A stretch of DNA of 32,638 nt from a virus, in the IMG/VR virus record IMGVR_UViG_3300025425_000920, positions 1 to 32,638 of that record. One strand, written 5' to 3'. Under the pieces are notes generated by a model. The model was not told where the DNA came from. It saw only the letters and a program-made list of their open reading frames with translations, and did not search any database. Of the stretch, positions 7,519 to 27,411 are shown in pieces (the stretch's first letter is position 1; each line of letters begins with the position of its first letter). Made by a program: the position numbers and the translations under genes.

Positions 7519-10500
7519 ATGGCATTAGTATCACCAGGAGTACAAGTCAACGTAATTGATGAAAGCTTCTACACACCATCAGCCGCTGGAACGGTACCTA
7601 TGATCTTTGTTGCTACAGCTAGTAATAAAACTAAAAGTAGCGGCACAGGAACAGCAGCAGGTACAATAAAAGCAAATGCGGGCAACCCATATTTGATCAC
7701 TAGTCAGCGAGAGCTTGGTGAGACATTTGGCGATCCATTATTTTACAGTGACAGCAATGGCAATATGATCCACGGCGGAGAGCTTAATGAATACGGTTTA
7801 CAAACTGCTTATTCTGCATTAGGCGTTTCAAATCGTGCATATGTTGTTCGTGCAGATTTAGACACATCAGAACTTACTGCAAGTGCAACAGCACCAGGCG
7901 GCGAGCCTCTAAACGGCGCACATTGGTTTGATACTTCAACTAGTAACTACGGTATCCTACAATGGAATGGCGCTAGTGTACAAGTTGTAGGCGGACAAGC
8001 ATTTACTGCAAAAGCCCCAACAGTACTTACAGTAGTAACTGACTTAGTTGGTAATGTAGCTGGCGGAGCTCCAAAAGCATCAATTGGTGCAATTGGCGAT
8101 TATGCAATAGACGCTAACGACACAATGAACCGTTTGTATTTCAAAACAGCAGGCTACGGAACAACTACTCAACGAGTAACTAATACAGGTACTTGGGTAG
8201 AAGTAGGTAGCAATGCATGGAAAGCAAGTTGGTCTGCGATACGCGGGACAACAACAAATCCAAATCTAACAGCAAACGGCGCGGGTAGTCATTCAATTAC
8301 TATTAACACTACTGATGTTCCATTTACTGGAGCTGAAACAACTATTGCACAATACGTTGCAATTGTTAACGCAGCAGGTATTGCAGGCGTTACAGCGGCA
8401 CAAGTTGATGGTTCTATTGAATTTTATGCAGATGCTACTAGTGATAGTGACGGAGCAGGCGCCGGCACAGCAGACGGCAACATTACAATAGCAGACGGAA
8501 CTGGCACAGCATTATTAGCAGCGTTAGGTCTAACAGCAGGCACATACAGTTCGGCTAGAATAGAAGCAGCAGCACATACAGCAGTTCCTGCATTTAAAAC
8601 AGCAGATACAAGTTCAGCACCAACAGGAAGTGTTTGGATTAAAACAACTACTCCAAATGGCGGAGCAAAACTAAGTGTTAAAGCTTATAGTACAGCTACA
8701 CAGCTATGGTCAAGTGTAACTACTCCAATTTACACTACTCCAGCACTTGCACTATATGGACTTGATAAAACAGGTAACGGTGCAAATTTACTAGCTGGCG
8801 CACTTTATGCAAAAGTTAATGTAGACGAGCTTGCTAACCCAATTGGAAACTACAAAGTTTATTCAAGAGCAGCAGCAGGCGCAACTAGCGTAACTGGCGC
8901 AGTAATTGGTGCAGCAGGCGTTGCAGCAGCTACATATACATTTACAGTATCAGAATCAAAAGCTAACACACTAGCAATGACAGCACCTGTAACAGTAAGT
9001 GTTACAACAGCTGACTCAAGTGCAGATGCAGAATTACTAGCAGCAGCAATTAATGCTAAAGGCTTAGTTAACGTTGTAGCATTAGTTGATGCAACTAACA
9101 AAGTTGTAATTCAGCATAAACTAGGCGGTGAGATTGAGTTTGTCGACACAGACAGTGGTCTAGCAGGATTTGGTTTTGCAGCAGCAACAGTAGCTAACTT
9201 GTATGTTGGTCCAGGCGACGCTGGTTTAGTAGCTTCAAACTGGAAGCCACTAGTATATACAGCATCAGGAACAGTTCCATTAAGTTTAGCAACAAGCAAG
9301 CAATTATGGTACAACAGTGTTACTGATGAAGTTGATATCATGGTGCACGCAGGCGAAAACGGCTGGGTTGGACTAAATCATGCAAACAGTCCTTACAGCG
9401 ACACAAACCCCGAAGGCCCGCAGGTTGCAGCAACAGCGCCTACAAATCAATCAAACGGCGTAGATGCGCTTGTAGAAGGCGATATTTGGGTTAGTACAGC
9501 AGATGTTGAAAACTATCCAGCTATCTATAGATATAACGCTACATTAAGCGAATGGATTTTACTTGACAAAGCTGATCAAACCACAGAAAATGGAGTATTG
9601 TTTGCAGATGCACGCTATGGCGACACAGGCGGAACAATTGATGACGCACCAAGTGCAACAATCGGCGAATTGCTAGAAAGTGATTACTTAGATCCAGACG
9701 CTCCAGATCCTGCACTGTATCCAAAAGGTATGCTGCTATGGAACTTGCGTAGAAGTGGATTTAATGTTAAGCGTTTCGAGCGCAATTATGTTGACATTAC
9801 TGCGTTGAATACTGCATTTGGGGATGAACCAATGGAAGACTACTATCCACATCGTTGGGTTACTGATTCAGGTAACCAAGAAGACGGTTCAGGTAGCTTC
9901 GGACGTCATGCACAGCGTAAGAGTGTTGTACAAGCACTACAAGCACTTGTTAATGACAACCAAGATATACGTGACGAAGAAAGTCGTCAGTTTAACTTGT
10001 TAGCTGCTCCTGGTTATCCAGAGCTAATTGGTGAAATGATCACACTAAACTATGACAGACGTCTAACAGGCTTTGTTGTTGGTGATACACCATTCCGTTT
10101 AACACCAGATGCAACTTCATTAAATGAATGGGCAACTAACGTTAAACTAGCACTAGAAGATAACGACGACGGCGCAGTTAGCTTTGATGAATACATGGCT
10201 ATGTACTACGGTTCGGGCTTTACAAGTGACAACGCAGGAAACAACATTGTTGTTCCACCAAGTCATATGGCACTACGTACTATTATACTAAACGATCAGG
10301 TTGCTTTCCCTTGGTTTGCACCAGCAGGAACACGACGTGGTGGTGTAAGTAATGCTACAAGTTCAGGTTATATTACTAGTGAAGGCGAATTTAAGTCAGT
10401 AGCATTAAACACTGGACAGCGTGATACACTTTATTCAAATGCAATTAATCCGATCACATTCATTAGTGGTGCAGGACTTGTAGTATTTGGACAAAAGACT

Positions 10501-10845
10501 CGTGCAAGAAACGCAAGTGCATTGGATCGTGTTAACGTAGCACGTCTAACTGTATACTTACGTGGACAGCTAGAGTTGTTAGCCAAGCCATACTTGTTTG
10601 AGCCAAATGACAAGATCACAAGAGATCAAGTTAAAGCAGCAGCTGATGCGCTATTACTAGAATTAGTAGCACTAAGAGCACTTTACGACTTCCTAGTTGT
10701 GTGTGATGAAAGTAACAACACACCAGCAAGAATAGACCGTAATGAGTTATACTTAGATATTGCTATTGAACCAGTAAAAGCTATTGAGTTTATATACATA
10801 CCGCTTAGAATTAAGAACACAGGCGAAATTGCAGCACTAGGTTAA
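7519..10845 (+). CDS. gp18: Tail sheath protein, enlarged with inserted repeat domains
   Basis: The gene encodes the contractile sheath subunit. The N-terminus (ALVSPGVQVNVIDESFY) and the C-terminal core (LLWNLRRSGFNVKRFERNY, QRKSVVQALQALV, NYDRRLTGFVVGDTPFR, PAGTRRGG, GLVVFGQKTR) are typical of T4-like sheaths. At 1108 aa it is much longer than T4 gp18 (659 aa). The extra length is at about residues 125-700. That part contains several degenerate W-rich beta repeats (near 134-156, 193-237, 369-405, 594-620, 653-685). It also has two stretches at about 255-340 and 470-555 that resemble each other and the flagellin-hook IN motif (strand, IVNAAGIAGVTA or AAINAKGLV, then a closing strand). An acidic DNDDGAVSFDE loop at 881-891 looks like an EF-hand. 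The insertions probably project from the sheath surface. Confidence 0.95.
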   Translation: MALVSPGVQVNVIDESFYTPSAAGTVPMIFVATASNKTKSSGTGTAAGTIKANAGNPYLITSQRELGETFGDPLFYSDSNGNMIHGGELNEYGLQTAYSALGVSNRAYVVRADLDTSELTASATAPGGEPLNGAHWFDTSTSNYGILQWNGASVQVVGGQAFTAKAPTVLTVVTDLVGNVAGGAPKASIGAIGDYAIDANDTMNRLYFKTAGYGTTTQRVTNTGTWVEVGSNAWKASWSAIRGTTTNPNLTANGAGSHSITINTTDVPFTGAETTIAQYVAIVNAAGIAGVTAAQVDGSIEFYADATSDSDGAGAGTADGNITIADGTGTALLAALGLTAGTYSSARIEAAAHTAVPAFKTADTSSAPTGSVWIKTTTPNGGAKLSVKAYSTATQLWSSVTTPIYTTPALALYGLDKTGNGANLLAGALYAKVNVDELANPIGNYKVYSRAAAGATSVTGAVIGAAGVAAATYTFTVSESKANTLAMTAPVTVSVTTADSSADAELLAAAINAKGLVNVVALVDATNKVVIQHKLGGEIEFVDTDSGLAGFGFAAATVANLYVGPGDAGLVASNWKPLVYTASGTVPLSLATSKQLWYNSVTDEVDIMVHAGENGWVGLNHANSPYSDTNPEGPQVAATAPTNQSNGVDALVEGDIWVSTADVENYPAIYRYNATLSEWILLDKADQTTENGVLFADARYGDTGGTIDDAPSATIGELLESDYLDPDAPDPALYPKGMLLWNLRRSGFNVKRFERNYVDITALNTAFGDEPMEDYYPHRWVTDSGNQEDGSGSFGRHAQRKSVVQALQALVNDNQDIRDEESRQFNLLAAPGYPELIGEMITLNYDRRLTGFVVGDTPFRLTPDATSLNEWATNVKLALEDNDDGAVSFDEYMAMYYGSGFTSDNAGNNIVVPPSHMALRTIILNDQVAFPWFAPAGTRRGGVSNATSSGYITSEGEFKSVALNTGQRDTLYSNAINPITFISGAGLVVFGQKTRARNASALDRVNVARLTVYLRGQLELLAKPYLFEPNDKITRDQVKAAADALLLELVALRALYDFLVVCDESNNTPARIDRNELYLDIAIEPVKAIEFIYIPLRIKNTGEIAALG

Positions 10846-16311: not shown

Positions 16312-17232
16312 ATGGCAGCATCATTAGACGGCGTCTTAATAAAGAAGGCAAACAGACAAGAAACATATACCAACGAGCAGGTTGAAGACTTAGTAGCCTG
16401 TATGGATCAAGATGAAGGATACTTGTACTTTGCTAAAAAGTTTGCTTATATTCAGCATCCTGTAAAAGGTAAACTGTTGTACGATCCTTACGAGTATCAG
16501 TTAGGATTAATGTATAGTTATCACAGCTATCGCTTTAACATTAATATGATGCCTAGACAAACAGGTAAGACTACGTGTGCTAGTATCTATCTAGCATGGT
16601 ATGCAATGTTTGTACCAGATCAAACTATTCTAGTTGCTGCACACAAATATACAGGCGCACAAGAGATTATGTCACGTATACGCTTTGTGTATGAAAGTTG
16701 TCCTGATCATATACGTGCAGGTGTTACAAGTTATAACAAACAATCGATTGAATTTGAAAATGGTTCGCGTATTGTAGCACAAACAACAACAGGCAACACA
16801 GGACGTGGTATGAGTATCTCGTTGCTATACTGTGATGAGTTTGCATTTGTGCAACCCAACATTGCTGAAGAATTTTGGACTTCAATATCTCCTACACTAG
16901 CAACAGGTGGTCGTGCTATTATTACAAGCACACCAAACTCGGATGAAGATACCTTTGCAACCATTTGGAAACAAGCAGAAAATAAGTTTGACGACCACGG
17001 CAATGAACAAGAACTAGGTTCAAACGGTTTCCATAGCTTTATATCACATTGGAGTGAACATCCAGATCGTGACGAAGCATGGAAAGTAGAAGAAGTTGGA
17101 CGTATTGGTGAAGAGAAGTTCCGACGTGAGTACGGTTGTGTGCAACACCACACAGAATTAATATTACAAGATTCTACTGGAAATGAATTTAAACTCGCCA
17201 TTGGCGAGTTGTTTAAAATGATAGATAAATAA
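16312..17232 (+). CDS. gp17: Terminase large subunit, N-terminal half fused to a 31-residue N-intein
   Basis: Residues 1-275 are the ATPase half of T4-like gp17. Walker A is PRQTGKTT at 81-88, Walker B with the catalytic Glu is LLYCDE at 171-176, and the coupling motif is ITSTPNS at 204-210. The extein ends at REYG. From Cys276 the sequence changes to CVQHHTELILQDSTG and runs to a stop after 31 residues. That is an intein N-fragment: catalytic Cys1 and a block-A-like strand, far shorter than the usual 90-100 residues. The complementary C-intein and nuclease half are encoded at 18260-19354. Joined at REYG/CEFLV, they give a terminase of 526 aa, close to usual length. The protein drives ATP-powered packaging at the portal. 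Confidence 0.92.
   Translation: MAASLDGVLIKKANRQETYTNEQVEDLVACMDQDEGYLYFAKKFAYIQHPVKGKLLYDPYEYQLGLMYSYHSYRFNINMMPRQTGKTTCASIYLAWYAMFVPDQTILVAAHKYTGAQEIMSRIRFVYESCPDHIRAGVTSYNKQSIEFENGSRIVAQTTTGNTGRGMSISLLYCDEFAFVQPNIAEEFWTSISPTLATGGRAIITSTPNSDEDTFATIWKQAENKFDDHGNEQELGSNGFHSFISHWSEHPDRDEAWKVEEVGRIGEEKFRREYGCVQHHTELILQDSTGNEFKLAIGELFKMIDK
17137..17229 (+). mobile_element. N-fragment of atypical split intein in TerL
   Basis: These 31 codons begin at the Cys that replaces the next terminase residue and end at the stop. The block-A Cys1 is present; block B is absent and lies on the C-fragment instead. That makes it an atypically split intein like AceL-TerL, the metagenomic TerL split intein with an N-part of about 25 residues. 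Confidence 0.88.
17224..17231 (+). promoter_or_regulatory. Possible late promoter box for the endonuclease gene
   Basis: GATAAATA overlaps the last codons and stop of the TerL N-half, 31 bases before the GTG at 17263. It could give the endonuclease and the C-half their own late transcript, but it may equally be chance coding sequence (Asp-Lys-stop). Confidence 0.4.
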
Positions 17233-17262
17233 TTGCATAACAACAATTTAGCGGAGAATATT

Positions 17263-18273
17263 GTGAGTGCAACATATATAAAATCAAAAATAGATAATAC
17301 CCGGTACTGTAAAACAAATGGACAGTTTACCCGTCATTTGAGAAAGCACGAGTTAACTTATCAAGAATATTACGAAACATATGTTTCCAAAACTAGTCCT
17401 AAGTGTCGGTGTGGTAATGCTCTTACATTTTATCAAAAAACAGAAACTTATGCTAACAGTTGCGGAGCACCACAATGTGTTGGAATATCTATATCTAATA
17501 CAAAGCAAAACTGGACAGCTGAGCAACAAGAAACAGACAGATTAAATAAACAACGTGCAGCAAGTACACGCACAGACGAGCAAAAGAAACTACAACTTGC
17601 AAAGTCAAAAGAAACATTTAAGGAAAACTATGGCGTTGATTGGGGGGCTAAATTAGAAACTCAAAAAGCAAAATCAAGAAAAACTAAGCTTGAAAAGTAT
17701 GGCAACGAAAAGTACAATAACAGCCGACAAGCTAGTTTAAGTAGAATCAGTCGAACTGTTGAACAAAAGAACAAAAGCAATATTCAGCGAAGAAAAACTA
17801 ACTTGGAAAGATACGGTGTTGAGAATGTGTTATTATTGAAGTCTAACCCTAGTAAGATTAATAAAGGAAATGCTTCCGTTAAAGATTATATATTGCCGAG
17901 TGGAAAATCCGTTGGCGTAAGAGGACATGAACCGTATGCATTAGACATATTGTTTAGAGATTTAAATTATCAAGAATCTGAAGTTGTAGTACACGATGAT
18001 TATTCGAACTACTCAATTGAAGTATTTGAATACGTTAATGTTAACAAGCATAAACATAAATATTATCCAGATATATACATACCTAAAGAAAACAGAATAA
18101 TTGAAGTTAAAAGCCAGTGGTGGTGGGACGGCAATGGCGCAGAAAAGTATATTTCTAGATTGTTAAATAATCTTAAAAAACGGCAAGCAGTAATTGACAA
18201 AGGATACAATTACGAAGTTTGGATTTTTGAAAATAAATATTCGTATAAGGCTTTAACTAATGAAAGTTTTTAA
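17263..18273 (+). CDS. Homing endonuclease, Vsr/PD-(D/E)XK type, between the TerL halves
   Basis: The protein is 336 aa from a GTG with GGAG 6 bases upstream; a TTG at 17233 has no ribosome site. An N-terminal zinc-binding region has Cys at about 48, 50, 67 and 72 (CRCGNALT and CGAPQC). The middle is highly charged with three repeats of the form KT..E.YG (near 115-130, 140-150 and 178-188), a likely DNA-binding array. The C-terminus is a nuclease core: GHEPYALD at 221, YYPDIYIP with Asp270, and RIIEVKS with Glu281 and Lys283. This resembles the Vsr-like endonuclease family linked to fractured genes with split inteins in marine metagenomes. Its last 14 bases overlap the C-half gene. It probably spreads the fracture allele. 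Confidence 0.85.
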   Translation: MSATYIKSKIDNTRYCKTNGQFTRHLRKHELTYQEYYETYVSKTSPKCRCGNALTFYQKTETYANSCGAPQCVGISISNTKQNWTAEQQETDRLNKQRAASTRTDEQKKLQLAKSKETFKENYGVDWGAKLETQKAKSRKTKLEKYGNEKYNNSRQASLSRISRTVEQKNKSNIQRRKTNLERYGVENVLLLKSNPSKINKGNASVKDYILPSGKSVGVRGHEPYALDILFRDLNYQESEVVVHDDYSNYSIEVFEYVNVNKHKHKYYPDIYIPKENRIIEVKSQWWWDGNGAEKYISRLLNNLKKRQAVIDKGYNYEVWIFENKYSYKALTNESF

Positions 18274-18598
18274 AGAAAACACAAAAAAATATAAAGTACT
18301 AACACCTACAGGGTTTGAAGATTTTGCAGGAGTAAGTATGATGGGGATTAAACCCTTGCTTAGATTAGAATTTGAGCTCGGAGCATATGTAGAATGTACG
18401 TATACTCACAAATTTTATGTTGATATAGACAACTATAAAACAGCAGAGTCGCTTATAATAGGCGACACTGTATATACGACAGAAGGTAATATAAAAATAC
18501 TTAATAAAATCGAGTTAGGATACAGTGAACCTGTTTACGATTTAATAGATGTTGCTAATGGCCATAAATATTATACGAATAATGTATTAAGTTCTAAT
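18260..18598 (+). mobile_element. C-fragment of the split intein in TerL
   Basis: These 113 codons start at the ATG and end at Asn before Cys+1. The fragment opens with FKENTKKYKVLTPTGF, close in pattern to the start of the AceL-TerL C-intein as I remember it. It holds block B plus blocks F and G, so the split lies between blocks A and B. Confidence 0.9.
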
Positions 18599-19354
18599 TG
18601 TGAATTCCTTGTATTTGACGAAACACTAATTAATAGTATTAAACTTGCTGTTATGGAAGGTGTAGCTCCTATGCTTAACATGGGCCAAACACGCTGGTAT
18701 AAGAAGCCTACAGCGCAATATACATATGCAGTAGCACTTGACCCTAGTATGGGAACAGGAGGCGATAACGCAGCTATACAAGTGTTTGAACTGCCTAGTT
18801 ACGAACAAGTAGCAGAGTGGCAACATAACACAACTGCTATACCAGGACAAATACGAGTACTTGCTGACATATGCAAATACTTACAACAAGAAACTAACAA
18901 TGCCAACGGCATATATTGGAGTGTTGAAAACAATGGCATTGGCGAAGCATGTTTACTTGTTATTAACGACTTCGGTGAAGAAAATATACCAGGATTATTT
19001 GTAAGTGAGCCAATGCGTAAGGGACACGTAAGAAAGTTCCGCAAAGGATTTAACACTACACACGGTACTAAGATTACAGCGTGTAGTAGACTTAAAACTA
19101 TGATAGAAAACGATAAGATGAAGATTAGAAGCAAGACTCTTATTAGTGAGCTCAAAGCGTTTGTTGCAACAGGCAGTAGTTACCAAGCAAAGTCTGGCGG
19201 CAGCGATGACCTAGTAAGCGCAACATTACTTGCGCTTAGAATGATGGCAGTACTTAAAGATTGGGATCCAAGAATATATAGTACCTTTACACAAGCTGAA
19301 GACATAGAAGATTACGAAGCACCTATGCCCATCTTTATAAGCAGTAACTTTTAA
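18260..19354 (+). CDS. gp17: C-intein fused to the terminase large subunit nuclease half
   Basis: Residues 1-113 are the C-part of the split intein. They contain block B (TYTH at 47-50, then KFYV), the block-F/G segment starting VYDLIDVANGHKYY, and the terminal Asn113. Residue 114 is the +1 Cys, and the extein resumes as CEFLVFDETL. The extein carries the RNase-H-like nuclease of gp17 with acidic residues in VALDPSMGTG (Asp161), SVENNGIGE (Glu223) and GGSDDLVS (Asp316/317). Trans-splicing with the N-half would release the intein and rebuild the motor-nuclease. The residue before Asn113 is Ser rather than the usual His. The ATG lies inside the end of the endonuclease gene, with AAGG upstream. 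Confidence 0.92.
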   Translation: MKVFKENTKKYKVLTPTGFEDFAGVSMMGIKPLLRLEFELGAYVECTYTHKFYVDIDNYKTAESLIIGDTVYTTEGNIKILNKIELGYSEPVYDLIDVANGHKYYTNNVLSSNCEFLVFDETLINSIKLAVMEGVAPMLNMGQTRWYKKPTAQYTYAVALDPSMGTGGDNAAIQVFELPSYEQVAEWQHNTTAIPGQIRVLADICKYLQQETNNANGIYWSVENNGIGEACLLVINDFGEENIPGLFVSEPMRKGHVRKFRKGFNTTHGTKITACSRLKTMIENDKMKIRSKTLISELKAFVATGSSYQAKSGGSDDLVSATLLALRMMAVLKDWDPRIYSTFTQAEDIEDYEAPMPIFISSNF

Positions 19355-23939: not shown

Positions 23940-24561
23940 TATTCTTATAGGATGTGACCAATCATATTACGATGATTGGGCAGTTACACTGTTAAAAAGT
24001 ATTCAACGCCACAATCCGCATATAGTATTGCATTGCCATATTGTAAATCCTACTAAACATAACGTTTTATCTTCAGTAAGTATCACAACCGAAGATAAAA
24101 CTTTTTCTAGTGTTGAGAGTAAAATATCATACTTGCAGAGTGTTAGATTTTTAGCCGTAGCAAATAAATTTTCAAAAAATGAAAATGTAATAACGCTTGA
24201 CGCAGATAGCATTTGTACTCGTGCAATATCTAAATCTGAATTAGAGTTGTTATTTAAAAATCAATATGTTTTAAAACATCATAAAGATAACAGATGGCTA
24301 GCTGGATTTATTGCATTTTTAGATAATGGATTTCGACAAGAATATGCAGCAGAATTGCAATCTAACTCTGTAGACACTTGGCTATGGGGAAGAGATCAAA
24401 CAGTGTTAAATGCACTTGCGCAAAACTATGATTTTTGCACTCTTAGTAAAACTTGGATGAGTATTGGAAAAATTAGACAACATAGTGCATTTTTAACACT
24501 TAAAGGAGAACAAAAAGTGTCTAGTAGATATCTTGAAAATTATAAGAAATACTTAACATGA
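23926..24561 (+). CDS. Glycosyltransferase, GT-A/DxD type
   Basis: This protein of about 211 aa starts at ATG 23926 (AGGA 7 bases upstream) and overlaps the uvsY end by 14 bases. Features: NILIGCDQSYYDDW at the start; SKISYLQSVRFLAVA; NVITLDADSICTRAI, holding a DxD metal and nucleotide-sugar site; LAGFIAFLDNG; and LWGRDQTVLNALA, the RDQ segment of such enzymes. It fits a small GT-A glycosyltransferase acting on a phage or host glycan. Donor and acceptor are unknown. From here the DNA becomes more AT-rich than in the structural genes, a possible sign of separate origin. An 11-bp hairpin followed by five T's lies inside at 24064-24106. Confidence 0.75.
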   Translation: MHQYNILIGCDQSYYDDWAVTLLKSIQRHNPHIVLHCHIVNPTKHNVLSSVSITTEDKTFSSVESKISYLQSVRFLAVANKFSKNENVITLDADSICTRAISKSELELLFKNQYVLKHHKDNRWLAGFIAFLDNGFRQEYAAELQSNSVDTWLWGRDQTVLNALAQNYDFCTLSKTWMSIGKIRQHSAFLTLKGEQKVSSRYLENYKKYLT

Positions 24562-25262
24562 TTACAGTTTATTGGTCAAATAGATATCCTAACTTTGGAG
24601 ACATTTTAACTCCTTTTGTATTAAATTATTATAATATAGCACATACTATGAGTTCAAATCCAGAGACTAGTGATGCAATGTGTATTGGGTCTATTATACA
24701 ACGGTCGACTAATAATATGATTGTATTAGGAAGCGGAGTTATGCATAGTAAACATAAATTAAATCCAGATGCTGATTATAGATTTGTTCGTGGGCCATTA
24801 ACAAGAGAAAAGATATTAAGTGCAGGCGGCTTGTGTCCAAAAATATACGGAGATCCCGCATTACTACTGCCATTATTTTGTAATGAAAGTAAAAAAGAAT
24901 ACGATATTGGAATAGTTCCGCATTATGTAGATTATGATGAAATGAAGCTACAGTATCCAGAATACAATATTATTAATTTAAAAAATCATAATCCTTTAGA
25001 AGTTGCTAAAGAAATTACTAAATGTAGACAAATTATTTCTTCATCGTTGCATGGCATCATAGCAGCTCATGCATACGGTATTCCTGCTGCTTGGATTAAA
25101 TTTTCTAATAAAGTAAAAGGAAATGATATAAAATTTAAAGATTATTTTGCATCGGTTAATGTTGATACACATATTACATCTATATTAGATAACGTAAAAT
25201 TTAGCACTGGTATATTACCCGATTTAAATAAGATCGAAGAAAAGTTTAAGGAGTTACTATGA
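24558..25262 (+). CDS. Polysaccharide pyruvyltransferase-family protein
   Basis: This 234-aa protein has the landmarks of the polysaccharide pyruvyltransferase family (CsaB/ExoV type). NFGDILTPFVLNYY comes near the start, then IVLGSGVMHS, YRFVRGPLTREKIL, IYGDPALLLP, IGIVPHYVDY, and the late motif IISSSLHGIIAAHAYGIP. Family members move a ketal pyruvate from phosphoenolpyruvate to a sugar, though related proteins act as glycosyltransferases, so the reaction here is not certain. It is shorter than many relatives (about 300 aa or more). The start overlaps the upstream stop by 4 bases (ATGA), and the end overlaps the next gene in the same way, giving a tightly coupled cassette. Confidence 0.75.
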   Translation: MITVYWSNRYPNFGDILTPFVLNYYNIAHTMSSNPETSDAMCIGSIIQRSTNNMIVLGSGVMHSKHKLNPDADYRFVRGPLTREKILSAGGLCPKIYGDPALLLPLFCNESKKEYDIGIVPHYVDYDEMKLQYPEYNIINLKNHNPLEVAKEITKCRQIISSSLHGIIAAHAYGIPAAWIKFSNKVKGNDIKFKDYFASVNVDTHITSILDNVKFSTGILPDLNKIEEKFKELL

Positions 25263-25933
25263 ACTTAAAAGCAAAAGGATGTAGTACACCTGCACCTAAT
25301 TTATTACAATTTAGATTATTAAAGTATGCATTAGAAGAATACAGTATTAATATTGAAAAATTAGATCCACTAGTTGATCATAGGAACGGTATTATAGATC
25401 TACAAGGAGTACAAATTGGGATTAAGTATCCTAAAGAATACTTAAATCATATATCATTATTAAATCATAAAAAACTATATGATTATTGCTTTGTAGGGCA
25501 TTTTGAGTCTTTTGGCCGGCAACAGAGTTTAGAACCATTTATAGAAAAAAACAGTTATATTAAACATTCTACTGTCGGTAGGCAAAAAGAAAAATATGAT
25601 TTTGATACACAATACTACCAAATAATTTGTAATTCTAAATTTGGTCTTGTTCCTAATCATGTTGATGCAAAGCGTCCTAAAAAATGGCAACACCCAAATG
25701 CATGGAGTTACAGATTTATAGAAACAATTATTTGTAATACAGTTCCAGTATTATTTTGCGAAAGTCCTCTAGGAAGTAATTGGATCAATGGATTTAAATT
25801 TTTATGGAACAACTCTAAATTTGATATTAACGACACTGAGTATCGAGATATAATTAAACATAATACTGCACTAGCAAATAGTCGCTATTTTCTTACACTT
25901 GACGAGCTCACTCAAATACAAAATTTATTGTAA
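25259..25933 (+). CDS. Exostosin-like (GT47-type) glycosyltransferase, probable
   Basis: This 224-aa protein starts ATGA-coupled to the preceding gene. The C-terminal half resembles the exostosin family. YYQIICNSKFGLVPNH is followed by WSYRFIETIICNTVPVLF, the helix-turn-strand in which the nucleotide-sugar site sits, and then by SNWINGFKFLW. The N-terminal half has YDYCFVGHFES, like the strand that begins the second GT-B half. The protein is short for a full GT-B enzyme and may be a compact version. Substrate is unknown. It ends just before a consensus late box that separates this three-gene block from the next. Confidence 0.6.
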   Translation: MNLKAKGCSTPAPNLLQFRLLKYALEEYSINIEKLDPLVDHRNGIIDLQGVQIGIKYPKEYLNHISLLNHKKLYDYCFVGHFESFGRQQSLEPFIEKNSYIKHSTVGRQKEKYDFDTQYYQIICNSKFGLVPNHVDAKRPKKWQHPNAWSYRFIETIICNTVPVLFCESPLGSNWINGFKFLWNNSKFDINDTEYRDIIKHNTALANSRYFLTLDELTQIQNLL

Positions 25934-25941
25934 ACTGCATA

Positions 25942-25949
25942 TATAAATA
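25942..25949 (+). promoter_or_regulatory. Late promoter box, exact consensus, leaderless spacing
   Basis: TATAAATA is identical to the T4 late consensus and ends 5 bases before the ATG at 25955. There is no ribosome site. It probably drives the second half of the glycan island. Confidence 0.75.
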
Positions 25950-25954
25950 TCTAT

Positions 25955-26731
25955 ATGAATAAAGTAGTATTAACCACCGGCGGATTTGATCCTCTACACA
26001 GCGGACACATTGCCTATTTCAAAGCAGCACGAGAACTTGGAGATCATCTAGTAGTTGGTGTTAACTCAGATGAATGGCTAACTAGAAAGAAAGGCAGACC
26101 ATTTATGCCTTTCGAAGAACGTTGTGCAATCATTAAAGAACTATCGTGTGTTGACGAAGTTATTGGATTTAACGACAGTGACGATACAGCAATAAGTGCT
26201 ATAGATCAAGTACTAGCAACCAAAGGTACAAGTTGGCGTGTTGTGTTTGCTAATGGCGGCGATAGAACAAATAAGACTACCCCCGAGTATGCTACATTCG
26301 GCGGACATCAAGATGTAGAGTTTGCATGGAAGGTGGGCGGTAGCAACAAAGCCAATAGTTCAAGTTGGATACTAGACGAATGGAAAACACAAAAGACTGA
26401 ACGTGACTGGGGTTACTGGCGTGTGTTAGATGACAGACCTGAGAAAGGTTACAAAGTAAAAGAACTTGTGATATATCCAGGCAAGGCACTAAGCGACCAA
26501 AAACATTTTAAACGTTCAGAACAATGGATGGTACTGGAAGGTGTAGTTGATATGCAGACTGAGTGGAACGGAAATGTATCAGCACTAAAATTAATACCGC
26601 ACGGAATACCTTATGAGATTGGCAAGGAAGTTTGGCATCTAGCATCTAACAGTGGTACAGAAAATGCACACATACTAGAAATACAATGGGGTGAGTGCGT
26701 TGAAGAAGATATAGAAAGAAGAGACACATGA
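25955..26731 (+). CDS. Nucleotidyltransferase fused to a cupin (sugar isomerase-like) domain
   Basis: This 258-aa two-domain protein begins with a cytidylyltransferase-fold domain at residues 1-130. GGFDPLHSGH carries the HxGH motif at 15-18, followed by GVNSDEWLTRKKGRPFMPFE, which is close to the second domain of HldE. Residues 150-258 form a cupin like the C-terminal domain of type II mannose-6-phosphate isomerases: DRPEKGYKVKELVIYPG, LSDQKHFKRSEQWMVLEG, then IPYEIGKEVWH. The first half would activate a sugar or polyol phosphate with a nucleotide; the second may bind or isomerise a sugar. The combination is unusual. The substrate is unknown, but the link to a glycan pathway is clear from the neighbours. 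The stop overlaps the next start (ATGA). Confidence 0.8.
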   Translation: MNKVVLTTGGFDPLHSGHIAYFKAARELGDHLVVGVNSDEWLTRKKGRPFMPFEERCAIIKELSCVDEVIGFNDSDDTAISAIDQVLATKGTSWRVVFANGGDRTNKTTPEYATFGGHQDVEFAWKVGGSNKANSSSWILDEWKTQKTERDWGYWRVLDDRPEKGYKVKELVIYPGKALSDQKHFKRSEQWMVLEGVVDMQTEWNGNVSALKLIPHGIPYEIGKEVWHLASNSGTENAHILEIQWGECVEEDIERRDT

Positions 26732-27411
26732 AAGTATTTGTAGGCTACGACCCAAGAGAAGACATAGCATATCAAGTATGCAAACACAGCATTGAACGGC
26801 ATAGTCCGACTGCACAAGTTATTCCGCTAAAACAAAATGATCTTAAACGTCAAGGTTGGTATTCAAGATCCCCGGACAAACTTGCTAGTACTGAATTTAC
26901 ATTTACTCGCTTCTTAGTTCCCGAACTTGTTAACTTTAGTGGTTGGGCAGTGTTTATGGATTGTGACATGTTACTTAGAACAGACATTGCAGAGTTGTAT
27001 GCACAAGCAGATGATACAAAGGCAGTGATGTGTGTGCAACACAACTACGCACCTAAAGAAGGCACCAAAATGGATGGACAAACACAAACAGTTTATCCAC
27101 GCAAGAATTGGTCAAGTATGATGCTTATCAATTGCGGCCATCCTGCTAACAAAAGACTTGACATTGATTTAGTAAATGAGAAAGAACTTAACGGAGCATA
27201 CTTTCATAGATTTAGTTGGCTAGAAAGTGATGATCTAATTGGTGAACTATCACCTGAATGGAATTGGTTAGTAGGACACTATAACGAGCCAGAGGATGGT
27301 GCACCAAAACTATTACACTACACAGAAGGCGGACCGTGGTTTGAAAACTATAGGAACTGTGAATACAATCAAGAATGGAAACAAGAATTACAGGCGATGA
27401 TGAATGGGTAA
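26728..27411 (+). CDS. Glycosyltransferase, GT8-like
   Basis: This 227-aa protein shows a GT-A fold of the GT8 kind. KVFVGYDPREDIAYQVCKHS opens the nucleotide-binding region. TEFTFTRFLVPEL follows, then GWAVFMDCDMLLRTDIAEL with the DxD metal site (DCD), and NWSSMMLINCGHP. KLLHYTEGGPWFENYR supplies the late His-Tyr/Gly metal-binding segment. The order matches small phage and bacterial glycosyltransferases that use UDP-sugars, though the donor is not determined. It overlaps the genes on both sides (ATGA upstream, 8 bases downstream), so it is coupled within the cassette. Confidence 0.8.
   Translation: MKVFVGYDPREDIAYQVCKHSIERHSPTAQVIPLKQNDLKRQGWYSRSPDKLASTEFTFTRFLVPELVNFSGWAVFMDCDMLLRTDIAELYAQADDTKAVMCVQHNYAPKEGTKMDGQTQTVYPRKNWSSMMLINCGHPANKRLDIDLVNEKELNGAYFHRFSWLESDDLIGELSPEWNWLVGHYNEPEDGAPKLLHYTEGGPWFENYRNCEYNQEWKQELQAMMNG

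What the first reader, a model, noticed from the sequence alone, without database searches (positions are those of the whole stretch)
16312..19354. Fractured large terminase gene: split intein with an endonuclease gene between the halves
The packaging motor is encoded as two genes. The ATPase half ends in an intein N-fragment, the nuclease half begins with an intein C-fragment, and a Vsr/PD-(D/E)XK-type endonuclease gene of 336 aa lies between. Joining REYG to CEFLV restores an uninterrupted gp17 of 526 aa. Fractured genes of this kind with split inteins were described from marine metagenomes, and TerL split inteins (AceL-TerL) are known. Here the whole locus is seen in its genome context. The essential gene depends on trans-splicing, and the endonuclease overlaps the C-half so all three parts move together.
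Basis: partly seen in the sequence, partly recalled or inferred. Interest (0 to 1): 0.9.

Follow-up and report, generated by a model that had tools for sequence, protein, structure and literature searches.

The report
Phage packaging motor split by intein
A large phage encodes its DNA-packaging motor as two separate proteins, each carrying half of a self-splicing element (split intein), with a DNA-cutting enzyme gene between them; the arrangement is of a known kind, but relatives carry the same gene broken at two or three places, which makes this a rich natural series for studying how genes get broken and rejoined.

Summary
Confirmed. TerL is encoded by 16312-17232 (N-extein plus 31-aa intein N-fragment) and 18260-19354 (113-aa intein C-fragment plus C-extein). 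Joined exteins give 526 aa, 517 identical to an uninterrupted relative. The locus is 100% identical in contigs from six other metagenomes, so no assembly artefact. The C-fragment matches the solved atypical TerL split intein Cat (E 5e-12). The 336-aa ORF between (GTG 17263) is Pfam DUF7487 with an invariant PD...ExK motif, not a recognisable Vsr protein. The locus lies inside a clade of intact terL genes, so the insert was most likely gained recently; homing is inferred. Splicing and cleavage are untested. The kind is known (fractured genes; AceL- and GOS-TerL). Newer is the family around it: three TerL sites (Walker A, Walker B, linker) carry inteins; 11 distinct loci are split at two or more sites, one (seen in two metagenomes) at three, so TerL comes from four genes. 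Nuclease families are swapped or lost, and contiguous inteins nest among split ones. Isolates have it too: Escherichia phage PD112, Serratia phage 92A1, and Campylobacter phage F341, whose TerL halves lie about 24 kb apart on opposite strands.

The parts
16312..17136 (+). TerL N-extein: ATPase half, 275 aa, ends ...FRREYG
   Evidence: Terminase_6N E 9.1e-14; 267/275 identical to intact L008
17137..17232 (+). intein N-fragment, 31 aa (CVQHHTELILQDSTGNEFKLAIGELFKMIDK) and stop codon
   Evidence: starts at Cys exactly where the intact gene reads CEFLV; same-length, same-pattern fragments in L004, L006, L104; one match in the record
17263..18273 (+). free-standing endonuclease ORF, 336 aa, GTG start (346 aa if TTG 17233); PD-(D/E)XK-like, Pfam DUF7487; probable homing endonuclease
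   Evidence: DUF7487 E 5.3e-28; start aligned with Met of relatives and preceded by GGAG; AlphaFold pLDDT 76, C-terminal domain about 85-95; Foldseek hits weak (best E 0.02), listed top hits mostly PD-(D/E)XK-type nucleases
18067..18111 (+). nuclease motif P269-D270 ... E281-x-K283
   Evidence: P, D, E, K invariant in 13 aligned relatives
18260..18273 (+). 14-nt overlap of nuclease 3' end with start of the C-half
   Evidence: sequence
18260..18598 (+). intein C-fragment, 113 aa, own ATG; TxxH (T47, H50), YDL, ends LSSN
   Evidence: phmmer to CatC 6dsl_B E 4.7e-12; profile also hits gp41-1, VidaL, NrdJ-1; PT-HINT 2.9e-4, below the Pfam cut-off
18599..19354 (+). TerL C-extein: nuclease half, 251 aa, +1 Cys, and stop codon
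   Evidence: Terminase_6C E 1.2e-14; gp17 nuclease 3c6a E 8e-12; 250/251 identical to intact L008

Best explanation
A phage terL gene has been broken at the codon between its ATPase and nuclease domains by an element made of a split intein and a free-standing endonuclease gene. Three proteins are made. The intein halves on the two terminase halves bind, fold into a HINT domain and ligate the exteins into one 526-aa terminase (inferred from homology to characterised atypical TerL split inteins). The endonuclease most likely cuts intein-free terL alleles at or near the REYG|CEF site in mixed infections, so that repair copies the whole 1462-bp insert (inferred). The insert reached this lineage recently from another phage (supported by the tree).
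For: Joined exteins 517/526 identical to intact L008. Intein C-part homologous to Cat, gp41-1, VidaL. IntN of 31 aa lies in the 25-37 aa range of AceL-TerL and GOS-TerL (PMC11766414). pN/pS of about 0.2-0.31 for nuclease and IntC against L004 and L006, i.e. kept under selection, though synonymous sites are near saturation. Nuclease motif invariant. Window sits among intact alleles on the TerL tree (path 0.005 to L008), away from the other split loci. Excess differences next to the junction against L008 (8 in 100 nt versus 4 in 500 nt, p = 1e-4, bins chosen after the fact) fit a co-conversion tract. Identical locus in six other metagenome contigs.
Against: No splicing or cleavage was tested. 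The penultimate intein residue is Ser, not the usual His (shared by sister loci). Fourfold-site divergence of insert and extein against L006 and L004 does not differ, so transfer from those sampled lineages is not shown. In relatives the nuclease is often lost or exchanged, so it need not be active here.
Confidence: 0.87

Rival explanations
1. Genes in pieces without splicing: the two halves assemble non-covalently into a working terminase, as reported for NrdA of phage Aeh1, and the intein parts are relics.
For: A precedent exists for NrdA of Aeh1 (PMC3653736).
Against: Both intein parts keep their catalytic motifs, with IntC pN/pS of 0.2-0.3 against the nearest loci; joins restore the exact intact length.
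Confidence: 0.05
2. The endonuclease is a passenger or serves another role (e.g. excludes rival phages) and does not drive homing of this element.
For: Nuclease families change several times and are lost at least 4 times on the intein tree while the fracture persists; a DUF7487 protein also lies at site 174 in L261.
Against: In the window's sister loci the DUF7487 gene and the intein go together at the same codon; the insert is nested in an intact clade.
Confidence: 0.15
3. An RNA intron or programmed read-through joins the halves instead of protein splicing.
For: An intron with a nuclease gene beside it breaks terL in phage ICP1 (PMC10448857).
Against: No Rfam match at gathering threshold in the window; intein motifs are in frame on both halves; the halves are separated by 1 kb with stops.
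Confidence: 0.02
4. Assembly artefact or decaying pseudogene.
For: The window lineage is known only from metagenome contigs.
Against: Identical in seven contigs counting the window; exteins 98% identical to intact TerL; the arrangement repeats in independent lineages and in isolates.
Confidence: 0.02

Closest known systems
Atypical TerL split inteins (AceL-TerL, GOS-TerL, engineered consensus Cat, PDB 6dsl)
   Same: Host gene, short IntN (31 aa versus 25-37), long IntC (113 versus about 104), sequence homology E 5e-12, Cys+1 followed by Glu
   Different: Window IntC is only distantly related to CatC and ends SSN instead of SHN; a complete locus with its nuclease gene is visible here
Fractured genes with split inteins (Dassa et al. 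2009, NAR 37:2560; paper not held, known from citations and memory)
   Same: Essential phage gene broken in two, split intein halves at the break, free-standing endonuclease ORF between
   Different: Nuclease is DUF7487/PD-(D/E)XK-like, not recognisably the Vsr-like family that I remember from that paper
Contiguous TerL inteins of mycobacteriophages (PMC5050341)
   Same: TerL is an intein hot spot; sites at Walker A and Walker B
   Different: Those are contiguous inteins in single ORFs; the split form is not described there
Split TerL in isolates: Serratia phage 92A1 (same linker site), Escherichia phage PD112 and Yersinia phage phiR1-RT (Walker B site)
   Same: N-half with IntN, nuclease-like ORF, IntC with C-half
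   Different: Other site in PD112 and phiR1-RT (IDE|CAF), other nucleases; annotated only as terminase, endonuclease or hypothetical

Membership tests
Fractured gene with split intein | host protein encoded by two ORFs whose joined exteins equal an uninterrupted homologue | tested here: met
   526 aa, 517 identical to L008, same length
Fractured gene with split intein | intein N- and C-fragments at the break | tested here: met
Fractured gene with split intein | free-standing endonuclease ORF between the halves | tested here: met
   336-aa ORF, DUF7487, invariant PD...ExK; activity not shown
Fractured gene with split intein | nuclease of the Vsr-like family of the original report | tested here: inconclusive
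   Pfam gives DUF7487 only; no PDB sequence match; Foldseek weak
Atypical TerL split intein (AceL/GOS/Cat) | IntN of about 25-37 aa and IntC of about 100-115 aa | tested here: met
   31 and 113 aa; reference values PMC11766414
Atypical TerL split intein (AceL/GOS/Cat) | sequence homology of IntC | tested here: met
   6dsl_B E 4.7e-12, profile 4e-13
Atypical TerL split intein (AceL/GOS/Cat) | Cys1, TxxH block B, C-terminal Asn, Cys+1 | tested here: met
   C1; T47/H50, N113, C114
Atypical TerL split intein (AceL/GOS/Cat) | penultimate His (usual, not universal in inteins) | tested here: not met
   Ser112; Ser or Lys in most relatives at this site
Atypical TerL split intein (AceL/GOS/Cat) | protein trans-splicing | not testable with these tools
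   needs co-expression
Homing endonuclease | cuts the intein-free allele and spreads the insert | not testable with these tools
   only indirect: insert nested in intact clade

The most novel reading that the evidence does not exclude
The window is the simplest member of a family in which one packaging-motor gene is broken by mobile split inteins at up to three sites (Walker A GK|T, Walker B Y|CDE, linker REYG|CEF), so that a working terminase is stitched from two, three or four separately translated proteins by different split inteins that must pair correctly. The fractures persist after the nuclease is lost, nuclease families are exchanged between fractures, some fractures may have healed back into contiguous inteins (L135, L026), and in Campylobacter phage F341 the two halves lie about 24 kb apart on opposite strands. 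I found no report of a naturally two- or three-fold split protein of this sort in the held literature.
Probability: 0.8. Interest if true: 0.78.

Novelty: new member of a known kind. Interest (0 to 1): 0.6.

Why it matters
The locus itself adds a full-length member of the atypical TerL split inteins with its nuclease gene. Its relatives form a natural series: intact, contiguous intein, split with nuclease, split without nuclease, two- and three-fold split, and dispersed halves. That makes the origin, persistence and reversal of gene fracture directly testable, gives naturally co-existing split inteins (29-36% identical in IntC within one genome) for multi-piece protein ligation, and assigns a likely role to DUF7487 proteins. 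Cultured E. coli phages carry related arrangements, so the biology can be tested in the laboratory.

Tried and rejected
Insert younger than the extein split from L006: a lower synonymous divergence vanished when only fourfold-degenerate sites were used, so dropped. Co-conversion tract: nominal p = 1e-4 but post hoc bins, kept only as weak. Vsr membership of the window nuclease: no sequence match and no Vsr among the listed fold hits. RNA intron: no Rfam match. The 31-aa IntN has no PDB match on its own. Dassa et al. 2009 could not be read. Whether L135 and L026 are healed fractures or pre-fracture forms cannot be settled, as the intein tree is unrooted; L135 is nested next to split L091 (97/81), and L026 keeps sequence like that just upstream of the split IntC of L104.

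Full report
Observation. The three ORFs are as described. TerL-N runs 16312-17232, the middle ORF 17233/17263-18273, TerL-C 18260-19354. Pfam and PHROGs identify both terminase halves, and Pfam calls the middle ORF DUF7487. The C-half's first 113 aa match the solved Cat intein (6dsl) and its remainder the T4 gp17 nuclease domain. A profile of the C-fragment from six loci also matches gp41-1, VidaL and NrdJ-1 inteins.

Joining. Cutting after REYG (17136) and before CEFLV (18599) and joining gives 526 aa with 517 identities to the 526-aa uninterrupted TerL of L008. The insert is 1462 bp. Of the 80 nearest TerL loci in IMG/VR, six are split at this codon, one has a contiguous intein elsewhere, and the others read straight through it.

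Not an artefact. The same locus, 100% identical (whole or in part), is in contigs of six other metagenomes (3300023501, 3300022857, 3300035698, 3300025603, 3300023238, 3300023243). Relatives at 65-76% identity in the nuclease have the same order, spacing and split point.

The nuclease. The start is GTG 17263: the Met of relatives aligns there and GGAG lies 6 nt upstream. P269, D270, E281 and K283 are invariant in 13 relatives. The AlphaFold model is good in the C-terminal domain; Foldseek hits are weak (best E 0.02), but the listed ones are dominated by PD-(D/E)XK-type nucleases such as influenza PA-N and RecE. Vsr type is not supported by sequence. pN/pS against the two nearest loci is 0.2-0.28, with synonymous sites near saturation.

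Recent gain. On a tree of TerL C-exteins the window falls inside the intact clade (path 0.005 to L008); the nearest other split loci with this intein (L004, L006) are 17% diverged in the C-extein. Gain in the window lineage is the simplest reading; loss in its intact relatives is possible. Junction-proximal differences against L008 are in excess (p = 1e-4, post hoc), compatible with co-conversion. A fourfold-site comparison did not show the insert to be younger than the exteins.

Mechanism. Shown: anatomy, homology, conservation, distribution. Inferred: halves associate and trans-splice as for AceL-, GOS- and Cat-TerL (PMC11766414); the nuclease cuts empty sites; repair copies the insert. The penultimate intein residue is Ser instead of His, as in its sister loci.

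The family. Profile scans with IntC, nuclease and Walker-B IntC and mapping of TerL exteins give 135 distinct loci, chosen by homology and therefore no measure of frequency. Inteins occupy three sites in TerL numbering: 86 (Walker A), 174 (Walker B) and 276 (linker, the window's). 65 loci are uninterrupted; 33 are split at 276 only, 13 at 174 only; 11 are split at both 174 and 276, one of them (L111; the same locus in a second metagenome, L112) at all three. Joined exteins of L006 (three genes) give 526 aa with no gap to L008, those of L111 (four genes) 528 aa with one 2-aa indel away from the junctions. Split inteins at sites 174 and 276 of one genome are 29-36% identical in IntC.

Dynamics. 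At site 276 two nuclease groups occur: DUF7487 and NUMOD3 proteins with HNH or GIY-YIG-like domains. On the intein tree, well-supported branches force at least 5 changes for the DUF7487 label, at least 4 for nuclease absence and at least 4 for contiguous inteins. At site 174 the nucleases share an N-terminal region but carry either an HNH-like or another, Vsr-like looking C-terminal module (by eye). Several loci keep the fracture with 0-62 nt between the halves and no nuclease (L111, L127, L140, L108). L135 is contiguous and sister to split L091.

Isolates. Serratia phage 92A1 is split at the same linker site; Escherichia phage PD112 and Yersinia phage phiR1-RT are split at Walker B (IDE|CAF) with a 199-aa ORF between; relatives of that C-fragment are in 28 records, one isolated on E. 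coli K-12 MG1655 (kaaroe). In Campylobacter phage F341 the N-half (F341_144, 108149-108865, minus, ends in an IntN-like 31 aa) and the C-half (F341_003, 1489-2817, plus, starts with a 100-aa IntC) are about 24 kb apart; 40 Campylobacter records match the window IntC.

Known and new. The kind (fractured gene plus split intein plus endonuclease) and the host gene (TerL) are known; the original paper is not held, and I rely on citations and memory. Searches of the held literature found no report of a TerL split at two or more sites; this does not prove absence. The window locus is therefore a new member of a known kind; the multi-site family is the more novel part.

Noticed in passing
L111:2098-7089 (IMGVR_UViG_3300020198_000018; same in L112): TerL encoded by four ORFs with split inteins at Walker A, Walker B and linker; nuclease ORFs at the first two breaks, no gap at the third.
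   Followed up: partly
L006, L087, L089, L104, L143, L161: TerL split at both Walker B and linker sites, each break with its own nuclease ORF; L087 has in addition a contiguous intein at Walker A.
   Followed up: partly
L266 (F341:1489-2817 +) and L269 (F341:108149-108865 -): Campylobacter phage F341: IntN- and IntC-bearing TerL halves on opposite strands about 24 kb apart, annotated as two separate terminase genes; about 40 Campylobacter phage records share the C-half.
   Followed up: partly
L262, L263, L264, L270: Cultured phages (Serratia 92A1, Escherichia PD112, Yersinia phiR1-RT, Escherichia kaaroe) with split TerL that the annotation does not name as intein-split; the upstream 583-aa ORF of kaaroe was not translated here.
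   Followed up: partly
L135:2036-2430 and L026:200-2275: Contiguous mini-inteins nested among or close to split relatives, possible healed fractures.
   Followed up: partly
L185:5903-8880: The 276 fracture is 3 kb and holds a DUF7487-family nuclease ORF plus a 596-aa ORF with DUF7487, homing endonuclease and Mom-like matches.
   Followed up: no
L089:321-4215: 3.9 kb between the TerL halves at site 174, with two reverse-strand ORFs besides the HNH-like ORF.
   Followed up: no
L225:2283-3131, L239:322-1158, L240:2635-3471, L243:1-552: A second TerL-like ATPase stretch (35-43% identical) directly upstream of the split terL in several loci.
   Followed up: no
window 24558-27411: Sugar and surface-polymer genes: PS_pyruv_trans, CTP_transf_like plus MannoseP_isomer fusion, Glyco_transf_8.
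   Followed up: no
window 7519-10845: Long tail sheath protein of 1108 aa (PHROG sheath E 3e-237).
   Followed up: no
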